Assembly: GCA_937916515.1 (NCBI GenBank)
Contig: CALFSX010000065.1
Coordinates: forward strand, 1 to 64,000
DNA length: 64,000 nt
Reading direction: 5' to 3'
DNA from: an uncultured Planctomycetaceae bacterium
GTDB taxonomy: Bacteria > Planctomycetota > Planctomycetia > Planctomycetales > Planctomycetaceae
Each line of letters starts with the position of its first letter. Position 1 is the stretch's first letter. Below the pieces are notes generated by a model that saw nothing but the letters and a program-made list of their open reading frames with translations, did no database searches and was not told where the DNA came from. The position numbers and the translations under genes are program-made. This document shows positions 2,573-48,234 of the stretch, piece by piece.

Positions 2573-2855
2573 GACAGCGCAAAAGCGTTGCCCCCCCTGA
2601 GCTTACCTCAGCGGCTCGCAGGGCCTCTGCGCGAGTCGCTGCATCTCAACTCGCGAACCGCAAACGAAGGCGATCTAACTGGTCCAGCCCAATCGGGAAA
2701 AATGAATTGAGGCAACAATCCGACTGACGTTGCAGATTTATTCAAGCAACGGCAACATGCACCTTCGGTTCGCGGTTGATTGCTGGAAGAAAACCGCAAT
2801 TACGAATCGTCGCGACCAGATACTATTCACCAGGCATGACGGGCGGCAGGGCAAT

Positions 2856-3800
2856 ATGACTTTGCTTTACATGGACGATAAATTCCTGCTGCACGATACC
2901 GGGCAGCATCCGGAATGTGCGGCTCGACTGCAGCATGTTCACGCAAGGTTAAAAGAGTCGGGTCTGGTTGAACGTTTCACTCAAGTCCCAATTCAACGAG
3001 CGGACGACGCTGACGTTGAGCGAGTTCACACGCAACAGCATATCGCCGCGGTTCGAGACTTTGCGGACAAGGGCGGCGGGCGAATCGAAACGGATACCGT
3101 GGTAAGTCCGGACTCGGCCGATGTTGCCTGGTTGGCCGCCGGAACGGGCATCGATGCTGTGGCACGAGTTGTGAATGGTGAAGACAAGTCAGCGCTGTGT
3201 CTGGTGCGACCACCGGGGCATCATGCGGTTCCGAATGGCCCAATGGGATTTTGCCTGCTGGGGAATATTTCCATTGCCGCGCGAACGGCCGTTCAGAAAT
3301 TGGGACTTGGTCGAGTGCTGATCGTCGATTGGGATGTGCATCATGGAAATGGGACCCAGGACGTTTTCTACGACGACGAAAACGTGACGTTCTTTTCGGC
3401 CCATCGATACCCATTTTATCCAGGCACCGGACGAAAGTCAGAAACTGGTCGAGGCAAAGGACTCGGCTCGACGTTCAACCTTCCGCTGGAATTTGGAGTG
3501 TCGCGGAAAGACTATCTGACAGCCTTCGAAAACGCGTTAACGAAAGCGGCAGACGCCTGCAAACCGGAACTTGTGTTGATTAGCGCTGGGTTTGACGCTC
3601 ATGCGGAAGACCCAGTCGGTTCTCTCGGTTTGGAAACAGAAGACTTCGAAACGCTGACCAAACTGGTGCAACAGGTCGCCGACACTCATTCTGACGGGCG
3701 TTTGGTGAGCATGCTGGAAGGCGGCTATAATGTCGAACGACTGGCCGATTGCGTGGAATTACACGCTCAAACGCTGCTCTCAGCTTCGCCAAACACCTGA
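2856..3800 (+). CDS. Histone deacetylase family zinc amidohydrolase
   Basis: Protein of 314 residues with the class II/acetylpolyamine amidohydrolase fold. Visible active-site elements are the His pair in PPGHHA (122-123), DWDVHHGNGT (158 onward, with D160 and H162 as expected zinc ligands), SAGFDAH (D247, third ligand) and EGGY ending in Y291, the transition-state Tyr. Bacterial relatives deacetylate acetyl-lysine, acetylpolyamines or similar amides; the substrate here cannot be read from sequence. The ATG at 2856 is preceded by a GGCAGGG-type ribosome site and begins the usual short beta strand. The reading frame is open back to 2730, but that stretch does not resemble the family. Confidence 0.93.
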   Translation: MTLLYMDDKFLLHDTGQHPECAARLQHVHARLKESGLVERFTQVPIQRADDADVERVHTQQHIAAVRDFADKGGGRIETDTVVSPDSADVAWLAAGTGIDAVARVVNGEDKSALCLVRPPGHHAVPNGPMGFCLLGNISIAARTAVQKLGLGRVLIVDWDVHHGNGTQDVFYDDENVTFFSAHRYPFYPGTGRKSETGRGKGLGSTFNLPLEFGVSRKDYLTAFENALTKAADACKPELVLISAGFDAHAEDPVGSLGLETEDFETLTKLVQQVADTHSDGRLVSMLEGGYNVERLADCVELHAQTLLSASPNT

Positions 3801-16531: not shown

Positions 16532-17752
16532 ATGGCAGTTATCCTTGGCGTAGCGATGTTTACCGGAGTGGTTGCGGCCCTCGTTGGTCTCATCGTAGCC
16601 GCTCGTGGCAAGTTGGTTTCGACCGGCGACGTTTCGATCGTCATCAACCACCAAAAGACGATCCACATACCGGCTGGCGGCAAACTTCTGAATGCCCTCG
16701 CAGATGAAGGCATTTTCATCTCTTCAGCCTGCGGTGGAGGAGGCACATGTGCACAATGCAAGGTCCATGTGCTTGAAGGTGGTGGCGACATTCTGCCCAC
16801 TGAAAAAACTCACATCAACAAGAAAGCAGAGCGTGAAGGCTGCCGGCTTTCGTGTCAGGTTGCTGTGAAGCAGGATATGAAAATTGAAGTACCCGAAGAG
16901 GTCTTCGAAACCAGGAAATGGCGTTGCAAAGTCCGCTCCAATCGCAACGTGGCCACTTTCATTAAAGAACTGGTCCTGGAACTTCCTGAAGGTGAAGACG
17001 TTGGCTTTAGAGCTGGCGGATACATTCAGATTGAAGCTCCACCACACGTGGTCGACTACCGTAACTTTGACATTCAGGAAAAGTTTCGAGAAGATTGGGA
17101 CAAGTTCAACGTCTGGGACAACATCTCCAAGGTTGACGAAACGGTCGTTCGAGCATACTCAATGGCAAACTACCCGGGCGAGAAGGGCATTATCATGCTC
17201 AACGTCCGAGTTGCCAGTCCGCCGCCACGATCGCCGAAGGGAACTCCTCCGGGTAAGATGTCTTCTTACATCTTCAACCTGAAGCCAGGTGACGAAGTAA
17301 CGATCTCAGGCCCGTATGGTGAGTTCTTTATCAAAGAAACTCCCGCAGAGAAAATCTACATCGGAGGTGGAGCAGGTATGGCCCCGCTTCGATCACACAC
17401 ATTCGAACTGTTCAAGAACATGCACACCGACTGCAAAGTATCTTATTGGTACGGTGGTCGTAGTGTTCGAGAACTGTTCTATATGGAAGAGTTTGAAGAA
17501 CTGGAAAAGAACAATCCGAACTTCAAAATGCACATCGCGTTGTCGGATCCGTTGCCAGAAGACAACTGGACAGGCCTGAAGGGATTTATTCACCAGGTTC
17601 TTCATGACGAATACCTGTCGAAACACCCAGCCCCTGAAGATTGTGAGTACTACATCTGTGGACCTCCAATCATGCTTAAGTGTGTTCAGGACATGCTGTC
17701 AGATCTTGGTGTCGAACCAGAAAACATCGCCTTCGACGACTTCGGCGGCTAA
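16532..17752 (+). CDS. nqrF: Na+-translocating NADH:quinone reductase subunit F
   Basis: Protein of 406 residues, the NADH-oxidising entry subunit. It has one N-terminal membrane helix (about 4-23) and a ferredoxin-like [2Fe-2S] domain with ligands C67, C73, C76 and C108. An FAD domain (RAYSMANYP) and a NADH-binding domain ([12 protein letters not shown]) follow, and the chain ends in the usual FDDFGG. Electrons pass from NADH to FAD, to the 2Fe-2S centre and then to the membrane subunits. It is the last structural nqr gene; a strong intrinsic terminator follows about 95 nt downstream. Confidence 0.97.
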
Positions 17753-17846
17753 CAAGAATCAATTAGCTCAGCGGTAATTTCTGTTGCCGCCTTTGCAAAT
17801 CGCCGTGAACACGGGCTAAACCGTTACCATGGCAGTGACTCATCCT

Positions 17847-17883
17847 GAGACCCCGATACAATCGTATCGGGGTCTCTTTTTTT
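17847..17883 (+). terminator. Strong intrinsic terminator after nqrF
   Basis: GAGACCCCGATAC (17847-17859) and GTATCGGGGTCTC (17864-17876) form a perfect 13-bp stem with the loop AATC, followed directly by seven T residues (17877-17883). This is the clearest rho-independent terminator in the window. It ends 20 nt before the start of the apbE-nqrM gene, so that gene needs read-through, antitermination or its own promoter overlapping the hairpin. Confidence 0.9.
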
Positions 17884-17903
17884 CTCGGGCGCGGATTTCT
17901 GCC

Positions 17904-19238
17904 ATGCGAACGATCTTTTTCCCAGCCGCCACACTGGTTCTGCTTGCCACCACTGCTGTTGCCACAGCAACTGAATCGCTGCAACTCACCGGCAACACAA
18001 TGGGCACCTATTATTCGATCGTTGTTGACTCACCACCGCAGTCACTGGGTGACGGATCAGCACTCAAGGCCAAGGTCGAATCGACGCTGAAAGAAGTCAA
18101 CCGCCAGATGTCCACATGGGACGAGACATCAGAGATTTCCAGGTTCAATAGCAGCACATCTACTGACTGGTTTGACGTTTCTGGCGAATTCGCGATGGTC
18201 GTTGCCGAAGCCCGGAAGATCCACGAACTCAGTGATGGCGCATTCGACCCAACTTTGGCACCGCTGATCAGTCTTTGGGGCTTTGGAGATCGTCGAGATA
18301 AACAAATCCCAAACCAAGCGGCAATCGAAGAAGCGAAGCAATCAACGGGAATGAAACATCTGGAGGTTCGGCTTACCCCCCCCGCCCTGAAGAAAGCCAT
18401 TCCAACATTACAAATCAATCTCTCGGCAATCGCAAAAGGTTACGGCGTTGATGCCGTTGGAAACCTTCTGGACGCTGAGCACCTGACATCGTACGTGGTC
18501 GACATCGGCGGGGAAAACCGAACGGGACTTGCCAAGTCTTCGGGTGGTGCATGGAAACTTGGAATCGAATCTCCCAAAGGTGGACTCAAGCGAATCCTGC
18601 AGTTAACGGAAACCTCTGTAGCTACATCTGGAGATTACCGTAACTTCTTCGAAATAGACGGTGTCACCTATTCACATGCGATTGACCCAACAACTGGATG
18701 GCCCGTAAAGAATCCTCCAGCCTCAGTGACGGTGACGCACAAGTCCTGCATGACCGCGGATGCCTGGGCCACGACAATGATGATTCTTGGAGCAGAACGA
18801 GGAGTCGAAGTCGCATCAAAGAACGGCCTGCCCGTGCTGTTTCAACTGATTCAGTCTGACGGAAGTTTCACAGAGCTTTCCAACGAGGAATTTAAGGCAC
18901 TTCCTCAAACGGAAGTCGCCGAATCTGACCCCGACGTCACGGACACTTCACCAGCGCCTAACGTGACTGACACAAAAAAAAACACAGCAAAGTGGTTTCC
19001 ATTCGCTGCAGCTGCTGTTTTGTTTGTGCTTGCAATTGGAGGCATGGCGATCGGCACCATGTTGCAGAACAAATCAATTAAAGGAAGCTGCGGCGGCCTG
19101 GCCTCCATGCCAGGCAGTGACGGGAAGTCCATTTGTGAGCTTTGCACAATCCCTAAAGATCAATGTACCAACGCAGAACTAAAAGAACAGATGCAGGCCG
19201 CTGCCGAAAAACGTGAAGCGTCTGGCCAGCAAGCCTGA
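17904..19238 (+). CDS. apbE: ApbE-NqrM fusion: FAD:protein FMN transferase with NQR maturation domain
   Basis: Protein of 444 residues. A signal peptide (about 1-22) leads into an ApbE domain (about 25-335) with NTMGTYYSI, the SAIAKGYGVD core, TSVATSGDYRN and the Mg-binding HAIDPTTGWP. ApbE attaches FMN to Thr in NqrB and NqrC outside the membrane. After a Pro/Asp/Thr linker comes one helix (about 364-385) and then KSIKGSCGGL with cysteines C396, C411, C414 and C421. This matches NqrM (DUF539), the small membrane protein needed for the NqrD/E iron centre. Topology fits: ApbE outside, one crossing, cysteines inside. The start is ATG 17904, because the upstream frame from 17829 runs through the terminator hairpin and lacks a signal peptide. 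The two functions are normally separate genes. Confidence 0.92.
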   Translation: MRTIFFPAATLVLLATTAVATATESLQLTGNTMGTYYSIVVDSPPQSLGDGSALKAKVESTLKEVNRQMSTWDETSEISRFNSSTSTDWFDVSGEFAMVVAEARKIHELSDGAFDPTLAPLISLWGFGDRRDKQIPNQAAIEEAKQSTGMKHLEVRLTPPALKKAIPTLQINLSAIAKGYGVDAVGNLLDAEHLTSYVVDIGGENRTGLAKSSGGAWKLGIESPKGGLKRILQLTETSVATSGDYRNFFEIDGVTYSHAIDPTTGWPVKNPPASVTVTHKSCMTADAWATTMMILGAERGVEVASKNGLPVLFQLIQSDGSFTELSNEEFKALPQTEVAESDPDVTDTSPAPNVTDTKKNTAKWFPFAAAAVLFVLAIGGMAIGTMLQNKSIKGSCGGLASMPGSDGKSICELCTIPKDQCTNAELKEQMQAAAEKREASGQQA

Positions 19239-19254
19239 ATATCGTTTTCAACGC

Positions 19255-22200
19255 TTATTCAATTTTGAGTGAATCGATGTCAAGGTCTGTCGTTTCAACC
19301 GCAGCTTCGGAACCCACAACCTTTCGAAGCCAGTCCTGCGAAGGCCACGCAAACGGGCGAAATTTCTCCGTCGTACCGGTTTGGTCACGGTACACCAGTG
19401 CTCGCCCCTGCGCAAGCGATGCAGCGACAGGGTTGTCAACCAGACTTGCCGAATCTGTTTGATTCATCCGGAATGCAATACGGTTTTCGAATTCACGAAG
19501 CAGTGAGTTCGACAACCAGCGAACAGCGTTGTTGAACGTGTCCGACCAGACCACGACATGAATTCCAACCAGCGGCCCACGTTTCAAAATGTCGCCTAGC
19601 ATGTTGGCAACAGTTAATTTCTTAGGCTCCCCATAGCTGCCCAACCCAAAGTCGTCTTCTTCTTTGCGTAACGATCGAAACTGTCCAATGTTACGTACGA
19701 TCAAAACGTGTTCCGGCCCAGCAGATAGCTCTGCGTTTTCCTCCCGAGCAACCACAGCATTGTATATCGATTCCACAATTGAATCGCATTCTGTGGACTG
19801 CTGAATTTGCACGTTTGCCGTCCCCAACACCTGCTGCAACGCAACAAACTTTTGCAGCGATTCCTTGTCCCGACCGTCATGCAGCATTGTTATTGCAGGC
19901 ACACCAGCAGCTGCTGCAACCACAGAAGCTCCGCACGATGTACTTAAAATGGTAAATGCAATCAGACTGTCCACGTGGGCTTCGTCTTGTCCTACAATCA
20001 GAATATTCTGCCCACTGGCTCGCCGAAGTTCGATACATGTGGGGGCCGCGATCGCGACCGGCTCACCCAGCCAAATAGTGACCGCATCGGTGCCCCGGCG
20101 AGTGGCATCAGCCATTCGGGCAAGATGGACGTTCAATGGAGCACACAGTTCCGCAGTAGGTGCCACGTTGCCTTCAAATACAATCATTCTGTATTCGGTA
20201 TCTGCTGTATTTCGAGGCTGTGACAGCATGGCCTGAATACCTTCTTCGCGTCGAGCTTCATCAAGCCATGCCACCTGAAACTGATGATTACCCTGGACAA
20301 GTCCGTTGGCATCGTTGTAGATCGCTTCGCCTGGGCGAGTCAGCATACGAGCAGCCATATTGTCTTCACTAAGAATCAGATGTGCATCGCTTTCGCTACA
20401 CTGCAACGCAATTCGAACGGCAATCTGCCCCATGGTGCTGCGGGCCAAAGAGTACGCACCTCCCAGTGTCTGCGATCCCAGCAGAACGTGAATCCCGAAT
20501 GCTCGCCCCTGACGAACCAGTCGGTCCAATAACAAAGAAGCTCTGGCAGAAACGCGATCTTCCGCTGTAAAGAATTCCTGGAATTCATCAATCAGCAGTA
20601 GCAATCGAGGCATCGGTTCCGCAGGAAATCGCGTCCGAAACGACGGCACATCCTGAACGCCCCGGTCACGAAACAGTTCGCCGCGCTCCTGCAAAACTTC
20701 ATCAAGTCGTTCAAGCACGCTAAGTCCAAATTCTCGATCGCTTTCAATCGCAACGACTCTGGCGTGAGGCAGCTTATTGGCAGCATACGTTCGAAATTCA
20801 ACGCCCTTCTTAAAGTCGATCAGATAGAACTGAATTTCATTGGGACTGTAATGCAGTGCCAGGTTGGTAATCAGAATATGCAAAAACGTCGATTTGCCGG
20901 ATCCCGTTTTGCCGGCGATTAAGACGTGCTGCGACGTACCTCGCCCCAGCCGCATGAACTGCAGCCTGGCTGCACCAGCACGACCGATCGGCAGGTCAAT
21001 TCCGTCAGCCGTTGAATGAGTCCAGATTTCGTCTGCACGTGGCGCAATCCGGTTGAAGGAAACTTCAACTCGACGCGCATCTTTGGATTGATCGCCTACA
21101 GCACGTACCAGCTTCACATAGTCAGCCGCTTTGGGTTCTTGATAGCCTTCAAACAGCACGCTTGTAGAAAATTGAAGCTTTGGCCGAACCACGTTTTCAA
21201 CAACCTGGAACCGCATGCAATTGTTTTTCAGATCATCAATATCAAACGATGGCGGAGCGGCAACAGCTGGATTCCACGCCACCAACGCATGTACTCCACA
21301 GCGAGAACCACTTGTCAGAATCGATGATAGATGCCGAGCCGATTCTTCGGTAAAAGCACTCGGAAAACCTGCGACGATAACAAAGTGATAAGGCTCCGCC
21401 ACTTCTCCGGCGGAAATATTGTACTCTTCAATCGAATCGAATTGACTGCGAAGATACGTCTGAAAGATGTTCTCCATGTGCTCCGTAACGCGTTGCAACT
21501 GATCACGAATCTGAGAACATTCTGTCCAGATACGACTCTGGATCAGCAGTTCGTCAAAGTCGGCCAAATGCATCATCGCAGAAAAACTCTGTCCGAGCCC
21601 GACTGGATCGATCAACGTTAAACGAATGCGCCCGGCAGGTATCACGGTCAGCAGCTTCAGTATTTGAGTTCGAATAAAACTCAATGCTGCTTCACGTCCC
21701 GAGGAATCGTGTTCAACAAGAATTGAAGTGTCTTTCGGAAACCTAAGTACAGCCGGCATTTCCACACATTGACTTGTCGCGACTTCGGATTCAATCCCAT
21801 CGGGCGCCTTGGGGGCCGTCACCAGGATGTCGCCAACGGAAATACAACGAGGCATCACTGTTGGCAACACCCACTTTTCCTGTCCGGGCCACCTCAACGT
21901 TGATGCAGCCAGAGCAATGGATTTTTGGCCAAGGCTTCGCAGTTGCTCCATTGCCGCGGTCCACGATTGCAGCAGCTGGCCAGCATTCTCTCGTTGCAAA
22001 GCCGTTGCCGATTGAAATCGCTGCTCACATTGCTGAAGATCCTCAACGAGCTGTTCAGAATGACGACTTCGACACGCCTGCAGATCCTGTTCCTGCAAGT
22101 GTGATATTCGTTGCAGTGATGCGGCAGCTTCAGTTTCCAGTTGCTGATTTCGCAGCGAAAACTCCTGAGTCAGTTGATTCAGTTGAGCTGAACTTTTTGC

Positions 22201-23262
22201 TCTGAGTTGGCTAAGTCGACTGTCGATTTCGGAGTGAATTTTCTGCGTCTGAGTTCGCCGTCGTTCGCTCAAGTCAAGACGCCACTCTTCCGCTGAAACT
22301 TCCAGGCGATCAATGACTCTTTCGCTTTTATCCTCCCATGCCATTCGCGCATGTTCTGCGTTGCTGAAGTCCTGCAACATCGATTGGAAACGAGTTCGCA
22401 ACCTGCCCTGAACCGTAAGCAGCACGACCGTTGCCACCAACAACACGACCGCTCCCGCAATCACTGCTGCAACAGCAGCCCATTGCCAATCGGGTCGGGC
22501 AATCTCGGGATTGATGAACTGCTGCAGGTCGGCGTTAACTGCAACAATCGGAATCCACAACAGAACAAAGGTCAACACACTAAAGCCCCAAATGCGGAGC
22601 CCCTTCACCCATTGAGGCAGGTGCATCTTTTCCACCTCAGCCGCTTCAGAAAATATGCGATCACCTGCCGAAACTGCTGCGTCGCGCAATACTGAACGAC
22701 TACCGTTGGCAATGTTCGCAGGAGGTGGAGTTGTGTCAGGCGCTGCGTGACATCGTTCAAGAAACTGCTGCGTGTGCTTCAACTGCTGATGAAGCTTGCC
22801 GAAACGTTCGTCCAGTATTGCTTTTTGAGTCGCATACGTTTCAGCTTCGCGTTCAAACTGAGTTGCCGGACTGTCTTCAACGCTTTCATCAAGGACGGAC
22901 TGCAGAATCCACGTTTCACTTTTTCGCTGCTCTTCAAGTTTCTCGACCTCAGCCGCCAGAGACGCCGCAACCTGCTGAGTATTTCGCGAATATGACTCAC
23001 GCAGGGATTCGTGCTGATAGCCCGAATCCAGCCGGACCGTCTCCTGTTGCCCCATTGCAGTTTGCTGAATACGGTCAAGTTCCTGAGCAACCGTTTGTTC
23101 ATTGTTGAATCGAATACTGGCAAGCTGGCGGTCTCGATCTTCGACCAATGCGTTTAGGTTAGCCCGTATTTCGCTTAGTTCGCGACGTCTTTGTTCACAA
23201 TCTGCCGATAGCCGTACCGCTAGAGAAAGCTGACTTGTGATATTTAGTTCGCTGTTTTCCAT
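19255..23262 (-). CDS. EssC/EccC-like FtsK/SpoIIIE ATPase with coiled-coil N-terminus
   Basis: Protein of 1335 residues. Residues 1-170 are predicted coiled coil (Gln/Glu/Arg heptads). Two membrane helices follow (about 222-244 and 260-284), then more coiled coil (290-450). Three ATPase-like modules come next: about 455-700 with no P-loop, about 750-1000 with an intact Walker A GKTGSGKST (784-792) and Walker B LLLLIDEF (887-894), and about 1060-1310 where GQDEAHVDS replaces the P-loop. This DUF-D1-D2-like order resembles the type VII secretion motor EssC/EccC. The FHA domains of firmicute EssC are replaced by coiled coil, and a third canonical ATPase is absent. Two small W-x-D proteins are encoded upstream on the same strand. 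Inferred role: inner-membrane motor for exporting them. It converges on apbE with a 16-nt gap. Confidence 0.85.
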   Translation of the reverse strand: MENSELNITSQLSLAVRLSADCEQRRRELSEIRANLNALVEDRDRQLASIRFNNEQTVAQELDRIQQTAMGQQETVRLDSGYQHESLRESYSRNTQQVAASLAAEVEKLEEQRKSETWILQSVLDESVEDSPATQFEREAETYATQKAILDERFGKLHQQLKHTQQFLERCHAAPDTTPPPANIANGSRSVLRDAAVSAGDRIFSEAAEVEKMHLPQWVKGLRIWGFSVLTFVLLWIPIVAVNADLQQFINPEIARPDWQWAAVAAVIAGAVVLLVATVVLLTVQGRLRTRFQSMLQDFSNAEHARMAWEDKSERVIDRLEVSAEEWRLDLSERRRTQTQKIHSEIDSRLSQLRAKSSAQLNQLTQEFSLRNQQLETEAAASLQRISHLQEQDLQACRSRHSEQLVEDLQQCEQRFQSATALQRENAGQLLQSWTAAMEQLRSLGQKSIALAASTLRWPGQEKWVLPTVMPRCISVGDILVTAPKAPDGIESEVATSQCVEMPAVLRFPKDTSILVEHDSSGREAALSFIRTQILKLLTVIPAGRIRLTLIDPVGLGQSFSAMMHLADFDELLIQSRIWTECSQIRDQLQRVTEHMENIFQTYLRSQFDSIEEYNISAGEVAEPYHFVIVAGFPSAFTEESARHLSSILTSGSRCGVHALVAWNPAVAAPPSFDIDDLKNNCMRFQVVENVVRPKLQFSTSVLFEGYQEPKAADYVKLVRAVGDQSKDARRVEVSFNRIAPRADEIWTHSTADGIDLPIGRAGAARLQFMRLGRGTSQHVLIAGKTGSGKSTFLHILITNLALHYSPNEIQFYLIDFKKGVEFRTYAANKLPHARVVAIESDREFGLSVLERLDEVLQERGELFRDRGVQDVPSFRTRFPAEPMPRLLLLIDEFQEFFTAEDRVSARASLLLDRLVRQGRAFGIHVLLGSQTLGGAYSLARSTMGQIAVRIALQCSESDAHLILSEDNMAARMLTRPGEAIYNDANGLVQGNHQFQVAWLDEARREEGIQAMLSQPRNTADTEYRMIVFEGNVAPTAELCAPLNVHLARMADATRRGTDAVTIWLGEPVAIAAPTCIELRRASGQNILIVGQDEAHVDSLIAFTILSTSCGASVVAAAAGVPAITMLHDGRDKESLQKFVALQQVLGTANVQIQQSTECDSIVESIYNAVVAREENAELSAGPEHVLIVRNIGQFRSLRKEEDDFGLGSYGEPKKLTVANMLGDILKRGPLVGIHVVVWSDTFNNAVRWLSNSLLREFENRIAFRMNQTDSASLVDNPVAASLAQGRALVYRDQTGTTEKFRPFAWPSQDWLRKVVGSEAAVETTDLDIDSLKIE

Positions 23263-23379
23263 GAGGATGTCTTTGCCCAGGAAATGGTCTGTGCGGAGTC
23301 ATTCGCAGAACGTTACCAGTCTTGAATAACGGACTCTGTACTGAAAGTTCCGTCGAATTAATCGCCTGCATGAAAACTG

Positions 23380-23628
23380 TTACAAAATCGGGCCTCGTTC
23401 CCGAGTGTGTGAGCAAACACGTTCGGCCTGCGACATCACACCGGAAAGTTTCTCAATGGTGTCCAGCATGGCACGAACCTGAGCCGACAACGGCACCAGA
23501 TACTCGTCCTCCACCTTCTGCGAAACGGAATCGGACCACTGTTCTTTGGTTTCCATCCAGATAAGTTCCAGCTGCTTCATAGCATCATTTAACCGAGCAG
23601 CGGGTGATTGAAAGTCAGCATGTTTCAT
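23380..23628 (-). CDS. Small helical W-x-D protein, possible second WXG100-like substrate
   Basis: Protein of 82 residues, almost entirely helical by composition, with no signal peptide or membrane helix. W31-S-D33 lies near the middle. The following residues K38, V39, D41, E42 and Y43 align position by position with W43-R-D45, K50, F51, E53, D54 and F55 of the WXG100-like protein at 24302-24574. The two look like members of one helical-hairpin family. Its start codon overlaps the previous stop by 4 nt (ATGA), so translation is coupled. The EssC-like ATPase gene follows 117 nt downstream. The pairing is my reading and was not tested by structure prediction. Confidence 0.7.
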   Translation of the reverse strand: MKHADFQSPAARLNDAMKQLELIWMETKEQWSDSVSQKVEDEYLVPLSAQVRAMLDTIEKLSGVMSQAERVCSHTRERGPIL

Positions 23629-24242
23629 TGTTCGGACTCGTCTTTCGTTTCCATCGCGGACAAATCGCTCAAAATCGAATCAGCTTCCGTTGACGAACCA
23701 GCATCTGAAGGTGATTCATCCGGCGATGGAACACGCTCAAGCGGAGCACCAACCCCCGGAACCTGCACGTTGCCATACGCCTCCAACCGGTCAACTGCCT
23801 GATTCAGCAGACTTAACAACTGCGGAATATCGCGTTCGATCGCTCGCGTTAGTTGTGACGAGCGACCGTGGTATTCATTGGCCTCGTGGTGAGCACACAC
23901 GCTCCAGTATTTCACAACCGGAATCTGCTTTTGAGCAAACTCAAGTTCCTTCTTCCATCGTTCAAGATCCTTTTGTTCTTCAAAACACGTCGGTCGAAAA
24001 TCACCGATCCGCCGCATTCTGCACTTGTGAAGTCGCACACGAGCTTCACCCATTTCACGATAGCATGTTTCAATCTCACGCTTCCAGAATCCTGGTCGAT
24101 CGCGTTCAAGCCAACCAATCATCCTTAACAGCTGCATTTCCAACGCAGAAACACATAAGCGAGCGTCTTCCTGAAAGACAAGCACTGCCGCCTGAAAACG
24201 CTTCAATGCATCAATCGACCGGACGTTTGCTGATTCAGTCAT
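23625..24242 (-). CDS. Conserved-context hypothetical helical protein of the type VII-like locus
   Basis: Protein of 205 residues with no family recognised. Residues 1-165 are charged and helix-rich, with many Arg, Glu, Leu and several Trp, and read like long coiled coils. The last 40 residues are Pro/Ser/Asp/Glu-rich and probably disordered. There is no signal peptide or membrane helix. It lies between the WXG100-like gene (59 nt upstream) and the 82-residue gene (4-nt overlap), so it is probably part of the same transcript. It could be a chaperone or adaptor for the small proteins, by analogy with accessory genes in other type VII loci. That role is inference only. Confidence 0.75.
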   Translation of the reverse strand: MTESANVRSIDALKRFQAAVLVFQEDARLCVSALEMQLLRMIGWLERDRPGFWKREIETCYREMGEARVRLHKCRMRRIGDFRPTCFEEQKDLERWKKELEFAQKQIPVVKYWSVCAHHEANEYHGRSSQLTRAIERDIPQLLSLLNQAVDRLEAYGNVQVPGVGAPLERVPSPDESPSDAGSSTEADSILSDLSAMETKDESEQ

Positions 24243-24301
24243 CGTAGTTACCCGTTGCTAAACCCACACTGACAAAAGAGAAGGGCAGCGGCTTCGCAGA
24301 A

Positions 24302-24574
24302 CTATTGCTGCTGTAGATATTCTTCAATCAGCTGAGCCTTGCGCATCAGATACGGAATGTAAGATTCGTTCGATTCAACAAAACGCCCCAACGCCTTCAT
24401 GTTGCCGCCAAAGTCTTCGGCAAACTTCAGGTGTTCTTTGTCTCGCCACGTTTGAGCAAGAGTGTTCAACTGAGCTGAGATTGCTCCGGACTTCTCGTTG
24501 AGTTCTTCGTTAAACCGACGCAGCATTTGAGCAAAACGCCGCAACTCGGTGGGATCGACAATCGCCTGATTCAT
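24302..24574 (-). CDS. WXG100-like small helical protein
   Basis: Protein of 90 residues with the WXG100 layout: helix, a central turn motif W43-R-D45 where WXG would stand, then a second helix. There is no signal peptide. The usual C-terminal YxxxD/E export tag is not evident; the tail is Gln-rich after IEEYL. WXG100 proteins form helical-hairpin dimers exported by type VII/ESX systems. The start at 24574 is supported by an excellent ribosome site, GGGAGGA, about 8 nt upstream; a longer frame back to 24724 has no such support. It is first in the locus leading to the EssC-like ATPase. Confidence 0.8.
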   Translation of the reverse strand: MNQAIVDPTELRRFAQMLRRFNEELNEKSGAISAQLNTLAQTWRDKEHLKFAEDFGGNMKALGRFVESNESYIPYLMRKAQLIEEYLQQQ

Positions 24575-25258: not shown

Positions 25259-28200
25259 CTATCGCGGCTGCGGCTGAGCCATTCCGTTAACTTGCTGTCG
25301 AAACCTCGGCATGCCCGGGTTTGTCGTCGCTCGCTGAAACACGCCAGGCGCCGTTAGCATCGGAATCTGTCCATTGGGACTTGGATTGAATGCCTGCAAA
25401 AACTGTTTCATCCCTTCGTCCAGCTGCCCCAATGCAGCAGCTCGCGTTTGTGGACTGCTTGTGGTGCCTCGAATTTCAACCTTTGACCAGTTTGTGAACA
25501 GACCACTTAAGATCGGAATCGGTACGTTTCGGGATCTGGCTGGGCGTGAATAAAAGTCCAGATCCACTGCTCCGGAAAAGCCGACGCTTCCCTGACCGCG
25601 AAAACTGATCGCTTCGCCAACAAGGTCAACGGGGTTTAGCCAGAATGCTTCATCATGAACAGAAAAATCCATCATTGCGTAATCAAACGCCGTCCGATTC
25701 TGAACGTTGAAATTGCCCTGAGACAGTGAACCCAGCAGCTTAACCATCACGGGCAGTTCGTACAGCGCTGCAGGACTGATTCGCAACTGCCCCTTGCCAG
25801 TCAGGTTTACGGAATCGTTGCTTTCTCCGGAGATCCCCATCCACGCAGTCACAACGCCCTTCAGGTTACGCTGATCCGGAATATGAATGCGGGCATACGA
25901 TTCCAGTCGAGCGTTCAGCAGTTCAGTGTAAAACTTGAATCGCCCGTTTTCTCGCAGATCCACTTTAGCATCCAGATACATTTCTCCGCCGTAGGCCTGA
26001 GCTTTCACCCGGCTGTTTGTATCAACCTGTGCCAGTGGGGTCTCCTCAAACACCTGCCGAGCGCCCATGACCAATTCTTCGTTGTTCAAAGAATATGGGC
26101 CTCGAATGGAAGCAAACGGCATTTCAAGAACCTCAGCCGTCTCCAGCTGGATGGTCCCTGTGTTTTCCAACTGAAACCCGTCCCAGGTTCCGGCGGCCGA
26201 AACCAGTCCGTAAACGTGTTCAACATCCAGTCCGGCATTCATGGCACAGTCATTAAATCGCAATCTCATGTCCCACCGAGCCGTCGTGTTTCGATCGCCC
26301 GCCAATGTTCCTCGAAAATCAATTTGCGACTTATCGATCGACACTGTGCCCTGTTGATGCAATCGCTCCATCGTACTGCGCCAGGTTTGCGGCAATGCAG
26401 CCCGCAACTGATCGTCTGGTCGAAGATCGCTTGCAGTCAAGTCGTTCAGATGCACCTGCCATTCACCGTTGGGCTTGGCTTCTGCCCAGCCTGTAGCGCG
26501 AATTTTTGCGGCGTCGTGCGTTGCATCAAACGAATGAATTTCGCAGTGCTGAACACCCGCGTATCGCGGATCATTGGAATCGAAGCTGACATAGGCTTCC
26601 TCAACAAACATGTCGAATGGAAACTGGCGCGGACGGATCTTTGTGTTAAAGATCCGCACCGGAGTTTCCGCCGGAAAGTGAACAATCACAGGTAGACCGG
26701 GCCCAGCCGTCCAATTCACCTTCGCCGTAACATCACAAAACCCATCCGGATCGATCAACTTCCAAAGATCCCGTTGAGAACGAGTTAACGCGTTGTAAAG
26801 GTCTGAATCCAACGGCGCGTTTTTGGCGGTAATCTTCAGGTCCAGTACACCGGGCGAAGGTTCGCCTGCAAAGCTTCCCGTCGCTTGTAACCGTCCGCTT
26901 CCGTGCTTGCCGACAAGCTCCAGAAACTGCCAGTTCTTTGTGGCACTATTAAACGTCAGATGCCCAGACAGCGACTCAATCGCATATGGAAATTTCACAA
27001 ACCTCATTTGGCCATCATAGAATCTCGCGTCCACCGCCATGTGAGTCGGCTGATCAAGCCCGGGAGGACGATAGAACACCAGATTCGCATTAGCCATGCC
27101 GGAAATACGCATGGAATCAATGACGCTTTGTTGCTTTTCCTGCAATGCATTTCGAAACCGACTATCGATAGGAAATTCCGTGACCGCCATCTGTAGTCGC
27201 ATTTCCGTGGTTGCTCCTGGATTTTTCATCCACCCGGTCACATGAATCGGACGATCACCAACGTTTCCTCGAACGTCGACATCAAGCAATACTTCATCTT
27301 CCAAAAGTTGCGGATCTACCTGAGAACCTGAAGCGGCGCCCTCCTGGCGCTGAGCAATTTTCCCTTTAAGCCCGCTGGTCGGATATTTGAACTTCTCATA
27401 CAACAGGGTGCCTTCGTGAATCTCCGCATTCAGTCCCCCAACCTTCCACGTGCCATCCGCTTGTTGATGCCATTCTGCATGAGCAGACACAATACCGTTG
27501 GGCTGGTATGCGTCAAAAAGTCGCTTTACTCTTGGTGGTAACAACGGGCTTAGTTTGGGGGAAACTGGAAATCGCTCCACATTCAACCACGCTTTACCCG
27601 GCGTTGCATCAGGGCCATTGGCCATTTGAAAGCCGCCGTTCAGATCGGCATCGCCACCACGCGCTTTGTTTAACCTGAACACAAGGTTCGCATTATCTTT
27701 ATAGAAAACACCATCAACTTCATTCAGTTCAATCGGAATAGCAACAGAAGCGACTCGCCCCTTCTTGATTTCAACTCGAATTTTGAATTCCGGAATCGGC
27801 GAATCCTTCACGCTGAATGCGTCAAAGTTGACGTTAAGCGTTCCTGAAAACTGTGGAGCCACCTGACTGTTGTCGCCAATCATTAATGCCGCTGCGTTTG
27901 CGTCGGAAGAAACGGTTGCCGTTGGCGGCAGCAGACGCTCCAATGCATCGTCGATCTTTGCAAGTTGCCCCTGAATCTGCGGGGCTGTCGATTGAGCAAT
28001 CTGCAACAACTGTTGATCGGCCTGAACATCTTTCAGGTCTCCGCCAAGTCGCCATTGCTTTGATTCAAGATCTCCAAGGCCGGAAAGGTTCAACACGCCA
28101 ACGCCAGGTAAAGCGATTCCGCCATCAAATTCATAGGCATGCTGAGAAGTTGGAATCGCCAGAAACCGGGGACTCGTCAACGATAATCTCGCCGGTGGAA

Positions 28201-28684
28201 TTCCCGTGCTGTGATTTAAAGTCAGCTGCACACGCAGATCTTCAACAACGACCTGCGGCAACCCAGCCATTGGAGTCTCTGGTCGATTGAAATCATAGTT
28301 CTGCCAGTTCCAGCGACCGTCTGTTTCACGCGTGACCAAAACTGCAGCAGACTTCAGATGGATTTTGGTGACGACGATTTCCTGTCGGTCCACAAGCCTG
28401 TCGGAGTCAATCAGCACGTTCAGTTCGGCGGCTCGCAACAGAGGCTTACCGCTGACAGCTTCTCGGATTTCAATATCCTTCAGCGTCACTCCGTGAGTGC
28501 CATTTAAGCTGGTTCCGCCAAGAATCAGCTTCAAATCCGGAGCCGCGACCGCGAATCTCTTAAGAATTTCGCCCTGAACCAGTTCGTCGCTTTTATTCCA
28601 GAAATACAGCCCCGCCAGGCCTGCAGCAACTGCCACAACCAGCGTAATGTTGATCATCCATTTCAGAACGGGAAGAAACTTCAT
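25259..28684 (-). CDS. Large AsmA-like envelope protein
   Basis: Protein of 1141 residues. It has a single N-terminal membrane helix (about 9-29), then KRFAVAAPDLKLILGG...LKDIEI and a long series of beta-rich segments such as GRWNWQNYDF. This pattern is typical of the AsmA/TamB/YhdP superfamily. The C-terminal third contains the AsmA-C-like stretch (GLYFYSRPAR-type region, then NVPIPILSGLFTNWSKVEIRGT). The last 50 residues are Pro/Gln/Asn-rich. Such proteins span the periplasm and are thought to move or organise lipids between membranes. It probably heads a minus-strand group away from the glycosyltransferase and sulfatase upstream. The exact lipid role is inference. Confidence 0.8.
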   Translation of the reverse strand: MKFLPVLKWMINITLVVAVAAGLAGLYFWNKSDELVQGEILKRFAVAAPDLKLILGGTSLNGTHGVTLKDIEIREAVSGKPLLRAAELNVLIDSDRLVDRQEIVVTKIHLKSAAVLVTRETDGRWNWQNYDFNRPETPMAGLPQVVVEDLRVQLTLNHSTGIPPARLSLTSPRFLAIPTSQHAYEFDGGIALPGVGVLNLSGLGDLESKQWRLGGDLKDVQADQQLLQIAQSTAPQIQGQLAKIDDALERLLPPTATVSSDANAAALMIGDNSQVAPQFSGTLNVNFDAFSVKDSPIPEFKIRVEIKKGRVASVAIPIELNEVDGVFYKDNANLVFRLNKARGGDADLNGGFQMANGPDATPGKAWLNVERFPVSPKLSPLLPPRVKRLFDAYQPNGIVSAHAEWHQQADGTWKVGGLNAEIHEGTLLYEKFKYPTSGLKGKIAQRQEGAASGSQVDPQLLEDEVLLDVDVRGNVGDRPIHVTGWMKNPGATTEMRLQMAVTEFPIDSRFRNALQEKQQSVIDSMRISGMANANLVFYRPPGLDQPTHMAVDARFYDGQMRFVKFPYAIESLSGHLTFNSATKNWQFLELVGKHGSGRLQATGSFAGEPSPGVLDLKITAKNAPLDSDLYNALTRSQRDLWKLIDPDGFCDVTAKVNWTAGPGLPVIVHFPAETPVRIFNTKIRPRQFPFDMFVEEAYVSFDSNDPRYAGVQHCEIHSFDATHDAAKIRATGWAEAKPNGEWQVHLNDLTASDLRPDDQLRAALPQTWRSTMERLHQQGTVSIDKSQIDFRGTLAGDRNTTARWDMRLRFNDCAMNAGLDVEHVYGLVSAAGTWDGFQLENTGTIQLETAEVLEMPFASIRGPYSLNNEELVMGARQVFEETPLAQVDTNSRVKAQAYGGEMYLDAKVDLRENGRFKFYTELLNARLESYARIHIPDQRNLKGVVTAWMGISGESNDSVNLTGKGQLRISPAALYELPVMVKLLGSLSQGNFNVQNRTAFDYAMMDFSVHDEAFWLNPVDLVGEAISFRGQGSVGFSGAVDLDFYSRPARSRNVPIPILSGLFTNWSKVEIRGTTSSPQTRAAALGQLDEGMKQFLQAFNPSPNGQIPMLTAPGVFQRATTNPGMPRFRQQVNGMAQPQPR

Positions 28685-45045: not shown

Positions 45046-48000
45046 TCAATCGTTCGTGAATAGACACTCATTTCGTTTCTTGTCCTTGACGCTGTCCCGA
45101 TACGACGCGAAAAACAAATCACGACCTTTGTCGCCGCGTACCGAATCGCGGTCGCCGTCGCTGATCAGCGTTGAGAGATTCAGAACATACGATCCATTCA
45201 GCCCGCTTGGTATGACACCTGTCAAATGGTCGTACTTTTTTTCATGTGTAACGTCTTCGCGAGTCCATTCGGCTTGCAGACTATCCAGAGCAGCCAGTGA
45301 ATCTTCAAAGGCCCAGATGTCGGCTATCAGCAAATCGTCACCGGCGTTTCCGCTGAGGTCATCTTTACCGGCGCCGCCGAGGATGATGTCATCGCCGCTT
45401 CCTCCGCTGATCCTGTCATTGCCCAACCCACCGATCAGGACGTCGGCTGCTCGACCGCCCGTCAACTGGTCGTTGCCAGCTCCGCCGTCGATCAGAGCAG
45501 GAATGTCGAGGCCTCCGTCGGAGCTGCCGTCGCTGCCGCCGTTCCCGATCGTGGCCTGGTCGTCCCCATCGCACAGCACGATGTGAATCGACCTGATCAG
45601 ACCAGGGTCAAAGCGAAACACATCTGCACCCTGGTCCCGGCCACCATCGCTGCCTCCGTCAGATCCTCCATCGCTGCCACCATCCGAACCACCGTGGCCT
45701 CGTCTGCGTTGTACATCAAAGTTGGCGACCACTTTGATATCGCCCGAGTCTCCATGTCGGCGTCGACCGGCTTCCTGAACATTCACGATATCCTTGCCGG
45801 ATGTCCCGACGATTTCCAACACGCCGTCAACCGTGACGCGAACACCGGTCACAATCGACGTAGTCGAGTCCAAGTCGAATTCGCCGTCCTGGTCAGTGAT
45901 CTGCACGGTGACCACAAACAATCCGCCGGTGGAATACTGATGATCGCCGGTGACCACACCCGTGAGCTGATTCACAACACCAGCCGATGTTGTACCGTCA
46001 CCCCAGTCGATCGTAGCGATATGAGTATCGCCAGTATCCGCATCGGTGAAGGTTGCGGTCAACGCAACGGTTTCGCCCGGCAACGCTTTGTCGGCCATCG
46101 TGGCGTCGGTCGTGAGGGTGATGATCTCGGGAGCCGCATTGGTGGCATCGTCATCGTTTAGAATGGTCAGCACAGCCGTTGCGTTGGCAGTACCGGAAAT
46201 GCCATTCGCCAATGACAGCAGGACCGTTTCGTCCGCTTCGATATCACTGTCTCCCAGCAATTCAACTGGGACGAACTTCGTCACTTCTCCGGGAAGAAAG
46301 TTTACGGTGATTGGTCCAACAGTGAAGTCATCCCCAGCAACTGCGGTGCCGCCGGTCAGCACAACATCGACCGATGACGCGATCGCAGTATTCACAGATC
46401 GAGTGATCTGAACGACGTTGGTTGTATTCGGCGAATCACCTTCCACGACAGCATAAGTTGCAGCCATGAAATCGTATTCCGGCGGCAGCGTGATTAGATT
46501 CATGTTATTGAAACTGATATTTGAACCAACATTTCCACGCGAACCGTCGGACGTGCCGGGCCCGGCTATGTTGACGTTCGGCGTGACGGGGAACCTTGAA
46601 AGATCGAGCGTGTCGATCCCTGAGGCAGCTCCGTCACCACCATTCAGGTTTGAATTGATCCCGGTGTCGCCCGAGGGGTGAATTGTGTCGTTTCCGCCGA
46701 GCGAAGAAATTACGTTGATCGCGACTCCGCTGGCGGTCGTCAATGCTGATGCATCCAGTACATTGTCGCCAGCACCGCCCGTCATTCGCAGATCTTCCAC
46801 ATTGGCAAATGTATTGACGTACGTGCCGACAAACAACGTGCCATCAATCGCTGTCATGTCAACGTCGCCGGTTGCGGTAAACCGGTCATTACCACCGCCC
46901 CCATCGATTGTGTTGTTGCCTTCGTTGTCCGCGATGATTTCGACAACGTCACCACCCAGCAGCGAATCGTTTCCGGCAAGCCCCGACAGGTAAATGGCAC
47001 TGATTCCTGAAGCCGCTGTTACGGCACTGGAGTCCAGGATGTTATTCCCTGCACCGCCTTGCAGCCGCACGTCCTCGAAGTTGGCATGAGTGCTGACGAT
47101 GCCATTGATTGACAGTGTACTATTTGTGAGGACCTGGTCTGTGTCGCCAAAGATGATCAGAATATCCGTACCGCCGAGTCCGTCCAGGACATTCATGCCA
47201 CCGGTATCGCGAATCGTGTCATTCAGGTAGCTGCCCGTGAGGATATCATTGCCATTCCCGCCAATAATCTGAACGAATGCCACATCTCCTCCGGCAGTGA
47301 TGGCTGACGCGTCGATTGTGTTACCACTGGCACCGCCGCGCATATCGAAGGTCTCGATACCAACATGGGTGTTGACGCTGGTCCCAATTGTGAAGGTGGT
47401 ATCAGTCAGCGTCATGTCGCTGTCCTGAAAGGCAGGAACGCCGTCGTCAAGCGCTCCACCGACAAAGGAATTGTTTCCAATGAAATCCAGGAATCCATTT
47501 CGCACTCCCGAAGCACCGATCAGCGTGTCATTCCCTTCGCGGCCGGTCAGATTGACGCCGGTAATGCCGCTGGCCGAAGTAACCGCTGATGCGTCGATCG
47601 TATTGTCGCTTAGAAGTCCGCCAAGACTTACGAATTCGACGTTTGCATATGTATCGAATTCGGAACCGATAGTGAGCCCGGCGTCAGTCAGCGTCATGTT
47701 GATATCAGAATTGACCAACCACTGATCGTTGCTGATTTCCCCACGACCATCGATTGAATCATTTCCATGACTTTCGGTAAAGCCGTCATTCAGATCACTT
47801 CCGATCATTATGTCATCTCCGTCTCCGCCAAACAGAGACGTGCGACTCAGACTTCCGACCTGGCCGACTGCTGACATATCCAGCGAATCGTTCATGTCGC
47901 CGAGGTTCACGTTGATCACAACCAGGCCCGCCGTCGGAATTGTGACTTCGTTGGCGTTGACCACAGTGATTCCGGCACCTGGCGTAATCGGAGCCGTGGT

Positions 48001-48234
48001 GTCGATGATCGTGATGATTCCTCCGGACTCAGAGATAGTGACTGTATTCGCCTCACCGGCGTTGGCAACAAAGCTAAGCGATGTACCGGACACACTTACG
48101 CTGCTGAGTAAAGCTCGTGGCTCGAGCGACTCCAGCATTGTGTTCGATGGTCTTCGCTGCCTTGCATTCACTCGGCGCGAATGCACGTTGCCGAACGATC
48201 TGGAAAGCAACTGACGCAGAGAAAAAAACAGCAT
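45046..48234 (-). CDS. LEPRALLS surface protein with Calx-beta, PKD-like and RTX-like repeats
   Basis: Protein of 1062 residues. An Arg-rich N-terminus carries LEPRALLS (37-44), a planctomycete export-linked signature, with no ordinary signal peptide. Four internal repeats of about 92 residues (starting near 177, 270, 363 and 455) share a T-x-x-x-L-x-I-G, NVE, LDASA-type and GNDTL-type pattern. A Calx-beta domain (about 585-695) and a PKD-like domain (704-796, TIDWGDGTT) follow. Next come a GGSD simple repeat (848-866) and RTX-like calcium-binding GGxGND repeats (917-966). The conserved-type tail DSLQAEWT...GLNGSYVL is typical of such proteins. Probably a large cell-surface adhesin or matrix protein. 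An AAAGGG-like ribosome site precedes the start. Confidence 0.88.
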   Translation of the reverse strand: MLFFSLRQLLSRSFGNVHSRRVNARQRRPSNTMLESLEPRALLSSVSVSGTSLSFVANAGEANTVTISESGGIITIIDTTAPITPGAGITVVNANEVTIPTAGLVVINVNLGDMNDSLDMSAVGQVGSLSRTSLFGGDGDDIMIGSDLNDGFTESHGNDSIDGRGEISNDQWLVNSDINMTLTDAGLTIGSEFDTYANVEFVSLGGLLSDNTIDASAVTSASGITGVNLTGREGNDTLIGASGVRNGFLDFIGNNSFVGGALDDGVPAFQDSDMTLTDTTFTIGTSVNTHVGIETFDMRGGASGNTIDASAITAGGDVAFVQIIGGNGNDILTGSYLNDTIRDTGGMNVLDGLGGTDILIIFGDTDQVLTNSTLSINGIVSTHANFEDVRLQGGAGNNILDSSAVTAASGISAIYLSGLAGNDSLLGGDVVEIIADNEGNNTIDGGGGNDRFTATGDVDMTAIDGTLFVGTYVNTFANVEDLRMTGGAGDNVLDASALTTASGVAINVISSLGGNDTIHPSGDTGINSNLNGGDGAASGIDTLDLSRFPVTPNVNIAGPGTSDGSRGNVGSNISFNNMNLITLPPEYDFMAATYAVVEGDSPNTTNVVQITRSVNTAIASSVDVVLTGGTAVAGDDFTVGPITVNFLPGEVTKFVPVELLGDSDIEADETVLLSLANGISGTANATAVLTILNDDDATNAAPEIITLTTDATMADKALPGETVALTATFTDADTGDTHIATIDWGDGTTSAGVVNQLTGVVTGDHQYSTGGLFVVTVQITDQDGEFDLDSTTSIVTGVRVTVDGVLEIVGTSGKDIVNVQEAGRRRHGDSGDIKVVANFDVQRRRGHGGSDGGSDGGSDGGSDGGRDQGADVFRFDPGLIRSIHIVLCDGDDQATIGNGGSDGSSDGGLDIPALIDGGAGNDQLTGGRAADVLIGGLGNDRISGGSGDDIILGGAGKDDLSGNAGDDLLIADIWAFEDSLAALDSLQAEWTREDVTHEKKYDHLTGVIPSGLNGSYVLNLSTLISDGDRDSVRGDKGRDLFFASYRDSVKDKKRNECLFTND

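What the first reader, a model, noticed from the sequence alone, without database searches (positions are those of the whole stretch)
19255..24574. Compact type VII/ESX-like locus with coiled-coil EssC-like motor
Seen: in transcription order on the minus strand, a WXG100-like protein, a 205-residue helical protein, an 82-residue W-x-D protein (4-nt overlap) and a 1335-residue FtsK/SpoIIIE ATPase with two membrane helices. Known: type VII systems pair WXG100 substrates with an EssC/EccC motor. No EsaA, EssA, EssB or EccB/D/E homologue is nearby. Inference: a minimal planctomycete type VII-like exporter, possibly undescribed as a unit.
Basis: partly seen in the sequence, partly recalled or inferred. 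Interest (0 to 1): 0.82.

Follow-up and report, generated by a model that had tools for sequence, protein, structure and literature searches.

The report
Membrane-anchored WXG100–ATPase operon of planctomycetes
Four neighbouring genes, kept together or at least kept in the same genome across many planctomycete families, encode a membrane-anchored molecular motor of the type VII secretion kind with three small helical partner proteins; it looks like a toxin-free, membrane-bound branch of a little-studied family, and nobody has yet shown what, if anything, it exports.

Summary
In detail: a WXG100 protein, a 205-aa long helical hairpin (H205), an 82-aa WXG100-like protein (SP82) and a 1335-aa EccC-like ATPase lie in that order on the minus strand. 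The order recurs across Planctomycetota. Of 155 high-quality genomes sampled, 22 have both WXG and motor, and none has only one; in 8 genomes of the whole sample the two are far apart yet both kept. The WXG is a true WXG100 protein (best solved relative: H. pylori HP0062). The motor folds like EccC but with three nucleotide-binding domains, only the middle one intact. YukD and EssB are missing from the genome; no WXG carries the YxxxD/E export signal.

The kind is not new. Zhang et al. 2012 noted 'solo WXG' proteins with a three-domain, middle-active ATPase in several lineages, planctomycetes included, and Bell et al. 2024 described the CoCoNuT-linked form. Related plasmid loci lack membrane helices and, where readable, put a nuclease toxin with immunity gene in the H205 slot. 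New here, as far as I could find: the four-gene unit; two membrane helices in the motor; no nuclease; family-tracking, mostly vertical inheritance. Export is likely but unproven.

The parts
24302..24574 (-). WXG: 90-aa WXG100 protein (motif W43-R44-D45; 15 of 90 columns invariant over 42 relatives; conserved C-terminal LLRKAxRIEEYLQQR-type helix)
23625..24242 (-). H205: 205-aa protein predicted as one long antiparallel two-helix hairpin (residues 10-76 and 87-158, pLDDT mostly above 90) with a disordered tail; no nuclease or other enzyme domain
23380..23628 (-). SP82: 82-aa WXG100-like protein (invariant W24, W31, D33), overlapping H205 by ATGA
19255..23262 (-). Motor: 1335-aa EccC/EssC-type FtsK-family ATPase
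22417..22593 (-). Motor residues about 224-282: two predicted transmembrane helices between long charged stretches
21079..21930 (-). Motor residues about 445-728: degenerate first nucleotide-binding domain (LIDPVGLG, no Walker A), folding like the EccC5 DUF domain
   Evidence: 8rin_A, Z 14.5
20248..20940 (-). Motor residues about 775-1005: the only domain with intact Walker A (GKTGSGKS) and Walker B (LLIDEF)
19258..20145 (-). Motor residues about 1040-1335: degenerate last nucleotide-binding domain (NILIVGQDE in place of Walker A)

Best explanation
The operon encodes a membrane-anchored type VII-like translocation motor with its own small set of helical clients. Shown or predicted here from sequence: an EccC-type ATPase with two membrane helices, a degenerate DUF-like domain, one intact ATPase domain and a degenerate last domain; a WXG100 hairpin; a second WXG100-like protein (SP82); a long hairpin (H205) whose gene overlaps that of SP82; strict co-retention of WXG and motor. 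Inferred: the motor forms a hexamer at the inner membrane through its helical stalk and membrane helices. WXG, SP82 and H205 pack together as helical bundles. The nearly invariant WXG C-terminal helix docks on the motor, probably on a degenerate domain as in EccC, and switches on the central ATPase. H205 is the cargo or the cargo-carrier domain, because in plasmid relatives the same slot holds a helical domain joined to another domain, in Helicobacter a nuclease toxin followed by an immunity gene. Planctomycetes have lost or never had the toxin part, so the cargo would be H205 itself or a partner on its variable tail, moved across the inner membrane for a housekeeping role.
For: Order WXG-H205-SP82-motor conserved across the phylum. 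Motor and WXG co-occur in 38 of 294 sampled genomes against 3 with only one, all three incomplete MAGs; among high-quality genomes 22 both, 0 single, 133 neither; 8 genomes keep both though unlinked (further split cases). WXG profile finds HP0062 (E 4e-12), B. anthracis EsxB (1e-8) and S. aureus EsxA (2e-5) over nearly its full length. Motor model: best Foldseek hits are all EccC/EssC; first domain matches EccC5 DUF; only the middle domain has Walker A and B. Two TM helices predicted in most of 40 planctomycete motors, with a stretch of near-constant length after them. SP82-WXG profile similarity. H205-SP82 ATGA overlap in 21 of 44 loci. Toxin slot: Helicobacter plasmid gene ends in a WHH/colicin-DNase nuclease next to SUKH immunity; H205 profile scores three slot proteins of other relatives above all 256 controls. 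Motor tree follows family lines.
Against: No export has been measured. No YxxxD/E signal in any of 42 WXG proteins. No YukD or EssB in the genome. Six relatives outside the phylum have no convincing membrane helix in the motor, so membrane transport is not the evident ancestral job. The H205-to-toxin link rests on weak profile scores (17-21 bits, best control 15) plus position, and the Helicobacter toxin itself is not hit by the H205 profile. The heptad test on the stalk failed.
Confidence: 0.5

Rival explanations
1. It is not an exporter but a membrane-tethered intracellular complex, related to the Ter/CoCoNuT stress and defence modules: the ATPase remodels or delivers the helical hairpins inside the cell.
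For: Relatives lack membrane helices and lie beside TerY-P triad-type genes and a CARF protein (Caballeronia), TerD genes, with a TerD domain fused to the motor (Rhodococcus), or Hsp70/GrpE (R. pseudokoreensis). Bell et al. 2024 also say a mechanism different from EssC is likely because the membrane domains are missing.
Against: Planctomycete motors carry two membrane helices; no fifth gene of any kind is conserved next to the cluster; inheritance follows families, unlike a defence island.
Confidence: 0.3
2. It is an ordinary T7SS whose accessory genes lie elsewhere in the genome.
For: Clusters are split in several relatives, so separate loci are possible.
Against: No YukD in 8 of 9 genomes and no EssB in 9 of 9; three instead of four nucleotide-binding domains; the motor groups with the solo-WXG relatives and apart from EccC.
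Confidence: 0.05
3. The motor is a DNA translocase of the FtsK/SpoIIIE type and the small proteins are regulators.
For: FtsK/SpoIIIE domain; VIA-align gives FtsK motor domains Z about 23 over about 265 residues.
Against: The genome has a separate canonical FtsK with 4TM, alpha and gamma domains; the motor has an EccC-DUF-like domain and a WXG100 partner; by sequence and Foldseek EccC/EssC rank first.
Confidence: 0.08

Closest known systems
Solo-WXG systems with a three-domain, middle-active YueA-like ATPase (Zhang et al. 2012, PMC3482391, table footnote naming planctomycetes)
   Different: Called mobile there; here largely vertical. H205, SP82 and membrane helices were not found mentioned in the passages read.
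CoCoNuT Type III-A-associated EssC-like/WXG100 module (Bell et al. 2024, PMC11090510)
   Same: Three ATPase domains with only the central one active, N-terminal coiled coil, two WXG100 proteins, one of them without the motif, plus a coiled-coil protein
   Different: There no transmembrane helices and the coiled-coil protein carries a restriction-endonuclease-like domain; here two membrane helices and no nuclease, and no conserved CoCoNuT or TerY-P neighbours
Helicobacter pylori HP0062/HP0066 and the plasmid locus of Helicobacter sp. NHP19-012
   Same: HP0062 is the best solved relative of the WXG and has the same WRD motif; FtsK-type gene in the cluster (PMC3397514, PMC4978471)
   Different: A nuclease is part of the cluster (HNH/ENDO VII in H. 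pylori per PMC4978471; WHH nuclease and SUKH immunity on the plasmid); plasmid motor has no convincing membrane anchor
T7SSa/T7SSb (ESX, Ess)
   Same: WXG100 hairpin and membrane-anchored EccC/EssC-type ATPase
   Different: Three instead of four nucleotide-binding domains; no YukD/EssB; no YxxxD/E signal; usually a single WXG100 protein per genome

Membership tests
Type VII secretion system (T7SSa/T7SSb) | WXG100-family protein | tested here: met
   PF06013 matches 42/42 members, best 1e-12; PDB EsxA/EsxB matches
Type VII secretion system (T7SSa/T7SSb) | EccC/EssC-type ATPase with two N-terminal transmembrane helices | tested here: met
   Foldseek and HMMER best hits EccC/EssC; two hydrophobic helices
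Type VII secretion system (T7SSa/T7SSb) | Four nucleotide-binding domains (DUF plus three) | tested here: not met
   DUF-like domain plus two; alignment and model
Type VII secretion system (T7SSa/T7SSb) | YukD/EsaB and EssB present (T7SSb) | tested here: not met
   No match in G000; controls ring in B. subtilis
Type VII secretion system (T7SSa/T7SSb) | EccB, EccD, EccE, MycP (T7SSa) or EsaA, EssA (T7SSb) | not tested
Type VII secretion system (T7SSa/T7SSb) | YxxxD/E export signal on the WXG100 substrate or partner | tested here: not met
   0 of 42 WXG, 2 of 45 SP82; 15 of 48 H205 but at differing places
Type VII secretion system (T7SSa/T7SSb) | Motor-dependent export | not testable with these tools
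   Needs an experiment
Solo-WXG / CoCoNuT-associated EssC-like module | Three FtsK-type domains, only the middle one with Walker A and B | tested here: met
   40 aligned motors; most relatives align over 750-840 model positions where EccC aligns only domain by domain
Solo-WXG / CoCoNuT-associated EssC-like module | Two WXG100 proteins, one without the motif | tested here: met
   SP82 vs WXG profiles hhalign prob 87, E 4.5e-6; SP82 profile hits a Caballeronia WXG100 at 30 bits against 10 for controls; PF06013 in 7/45
Solo-WXG / CoCoNuT-associated EssC-like module | Long N-terminal coiled coil | tested here: inconclusive
   Charged, Pro/Gly-poor stretches, but heptad test negative
Solo-WXG / CoCoNuT-associated EssC-like module | No transmembrane helices in the ATPase | tested here: not met
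   At least one, mostly two, in all 40 planctomycete motors; none in five of six relatives, one marginal segment in the sixth
Solo-WXG / CoCoNuT-associated EssC-like module | Coiled-coil protein fused to a nuclease | tested here: not met
   H205 has no Pfam domain in the window copy and only scattered chance-like hits in 48 relatives
Solo-WXG / CoCoNuT-associated EssC-like module | Mobile element | tested here: not met
   Motor tree follows families: 5 changes, the minimum, against 16.2 shuffled

The most novel reading that the evidence does not exclude
Planctomycetes run a membrane-anchored WXG100 exporter as a stable, toxin-free housekeeping machine made of only four genes, a third branch beside the Gram-positive T7SS and the TM-less toxin-bearing modules, that moves a long helical hairpin protein across the inner membrane of a two-membrane bacterium.
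Probability: 0.35. Interest if true: 0.8.

Novelty: new variant of a known kind. Interest (0 to 1): 0.55.

Why it matters
WXG100-plus-FtsK pairs in Gram-negative bacteria have been noted but, per a 2023 review (PMC10765036), not confirmed as secretion systems. A four-gene, membrane-anchored, chromosomal version, also present in a cultured strain (Botrimarina hoheduenensis Pla111 is among the loci), would be one of the simplest places to ask whether such a system exports protein. It also suggests that the nuclease cargo of the related plasmid loci is an add-on, and that the bare hairpin set is a stable machine in its own right.

Tried and rejected
Chromosomal FtsK role: rejected, the genome has a separate canonical FtsK. 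Canonical T7SS with remote accessory genes: YukD and EssB not found; the one YukD hit, in G037, lies about 1.05 Mb from its nearer motor copy and was not pursued. A fifth conserved neighbour gene: none, the most common neighbour family is in 6 of 39 loci. Toxin domains on planctomycete H205: none; two long C-terminal extensions (L208, L198) show no recognisable domain by eye (not searched against Pfam). H205 structure search: only generic long coiled coils, no hit under E 0.02, so no functional claim from it; a weak LXG-complex match (8gmh_C, E 0.49) is not used. Heptad periodicity of the stalk: negative. PADLOC: matches of the motor's ATPase domain to FtsK/HerA-like models plus weak chance-like hits, none for the small proteins. 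Phage collection: one unannotated gut contig (L228) with a related TM-less motor beside a 349-aa protein with a WXG-like start. HP0063-HP0065 could not be read, since no H. pylori genome was reachable.
Full report
Observation. Nothing else of this kind was seen next to them: on one side are NqrF and ApbE genes, on the other a 1141-aa AsmA/YhdP-like gene.

Conservation. The motor is found in most of 38 related genomes. Reading the loci shows WXG-H205-SP82-motor in that order again and again in the class and in other planctomycete families, and in 39 of 81 loci centred on the WXG gene, several of the others being cut by contig ends. No fifth neighbour is conserved. In an even sample of 294 genomes of the phylum, 40 have the WXG and 39 the motor; 38 have both and the three odd ones are incomplete MAGs. 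Among 155 high-quality genomes the same 22 have both. These counts are not independent of descent, but in eight genomes (G011, G124, G142, G173, G188, G229, G250, G285) WXG and motor lie far apart and both are still kept. G004 and G018 are split too. Genomes lacking the motor that were tested for H205 and SP82 lack those as well (G008, G014, G027, G032). This is good evidence for one functional unit. The motor tree follows families, which speaks for vertical descent.

Components. The WXG is 90 residues, almost without gaps, with 15 invariant columns over 42 relatives. It is the most conserved of the three small proteins (mean column identity 63% against 30% for H205 and 37% for SP82) and usually the only WXG100 protein in the genome: 7 of 9 genomes had a single PF06013 match. 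Its profile matches HP0062 of H. pylori, B. anthracis EsxB and S. aureus EsxA over nearly the full length, and Pfam WXG100 in every member. SP82 shares the W-x-D turn and is a WXG100 relative by profile comparison. H205 is predicted as a hairpin of two helices of about 70 residues each with a variable disordered tail; structure searches gave only generic coiled coils. H205 and SP82 overlap by ATGA in 21 of 44 loci, which suggests coupled synthesis.

Motor. Residues 445-1335 were modelled (pLDDT 81.6, pTM 0.68). The best structural matches are EccC and EssC. VIA-align places the first domain on the EccC5 DUF domain (Z 14.5, 223 residues, 3.8 A) and covers 724 residues of EccC, though with high rmsd (14.1 A), which I put down to domain orientation. 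Walker A and B are intact only in the middle domain; the first and last are degenerate throughout 40 motors. N-terminal to this core are two membrane helices, followed by a charged, Pro/Gly-poor stretch of mostly 153-168 residues. I could not confirm a regular heptad pattern.

Relatives outside the phylum. Plasmids of Helicobacter, Caballeronia, two Rhodococcus and a Deinococcus encode motors alignable over the same three domains (in Helicobacter mainly the first two). None of these motors shows convincing membrane helices. Four of the five loci have a clear WXG100 relative. In the Helicobacter locus the next gene is a helical protein ending in a WHH/colicin-DNase nuclease, followed by a SUKH immunity gene and a 77-aa gene before the motor. 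In Caballeronia a 436-aa protein with a helical N-terminus fills the same slot; I read its C-terminus as nuclease-like by eye, and Pfam names nothing. The H205 profile scores three of these slot proteins above every one of 256 controls, but only by a small margin. The 76-77-aa genes before the Helicobacter and Caballeronia motors match SP82 in size and place but not by profile. The tree joins planctomycete motors with these relatives and sets them apart from EccC and other FtsK-like ATPases (97/83), planctomycetes forming one clade (86/90).

Prior knowledge. Zhang et al. 2012 (PMC3482391) state in a table footnote that planctomycetes and other lineages have solo WXG domains with a distinct ATPase of three HerA/FtsK domains, only the middle one active, and call them mobile versions of T7SS. 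Bell et al. 2024 (PMC11090510) describe the CoCoNuT-associated version: same ATPase layout, N-terminal coiled coil, no membrane helices, two WXG100 proteins and a coiled-coil nuclease, and doubt an EssC-like mechanism for lack of membrane domains. An H. pylori study (PMC4978471) lists a WXG100 secretion system with FtsK and an HNH nuclease. A 2023 review (PMC10765036) says Gram-negative WXG100/FtsK pairs are not functionally confirmed. So the kind is known in outline.

What is new, as far as the held literature shows: the four-component make-up in planctomycetes, the two membrane helices, absence of nuclease and immunity genes, the strong conservation of the WXG, co-retention when unlinked, and mostly vertical inheritance. 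Papers outside the open library, above all Sutcliffe 2011 and Anantharaman et al. 2012, could not be read.

Mechanism. The best reading is a membrane-anchored type VII-like motor with three helical clients or adaptors; the H205 slot is where cargo seems to sit in relatives. Export itself is inferred. The main rival, a membrane-tethered intracellular complex, remains open.

Noticed in passing
window 16532-19238 (+): NqrF (16532-17752) followed by an ApbE flavin transferase with an NqrM domain at its C-terminus (17829-19238): maturation factor and subunit gene side by side, ending 16 nt short of the motor's stop codon on the other strand.
   Followed up: no
window 25259-28684 (-): 1141-aa AsmA/YhdP/DUF748-like protein upstream of the operon; not a conserved neighbour of the cluster.
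   Followed up: partly
window 45046-48234 (-): About 1060-aa protein with Calx-beta, PKD and RTX calcium-binding repeats, likely a secreted surface protein.
   Followed up: no
window 2730-3800 (+): Histone-deacetylase-family protein near pyruvate dehydrogenase E1 and E2 genes.
   Followed up: no
G037:C1:3341505-3341732 (L232): A YukD-type ubiquitin-like protein in one relative, about 1.05 Mb from its nearer motor copy; none in the other eight genomes tested.
   Followed up: partly
G033 and G037 (L047/L059, L046/L058): Two complete H205-SP82-motor sets but a single WXG gene per genome, so one WXG may serve two motors.
   Followed up: partly
L225:7492-11460: Rhodococcus plasmid motor of this family carries an N-terminal TerD domain (E 4e-19), a direct fusion of a Ter stress domain and an EccC-like ATPase.
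   Followed up: no
L228:2037-7371: Unannotated 'phage' contig from human gut encodes a related motor with a duplicated first domain, followed by a 349-aa protein with a WXG-like start and an unknown C-terminal part.
   Followed up: partly
G144 (L125:7042-10631): WXG and motor adjacent, without detectable H205 or SP82 between them; possible reduced or diverged version.
   Followed up: no
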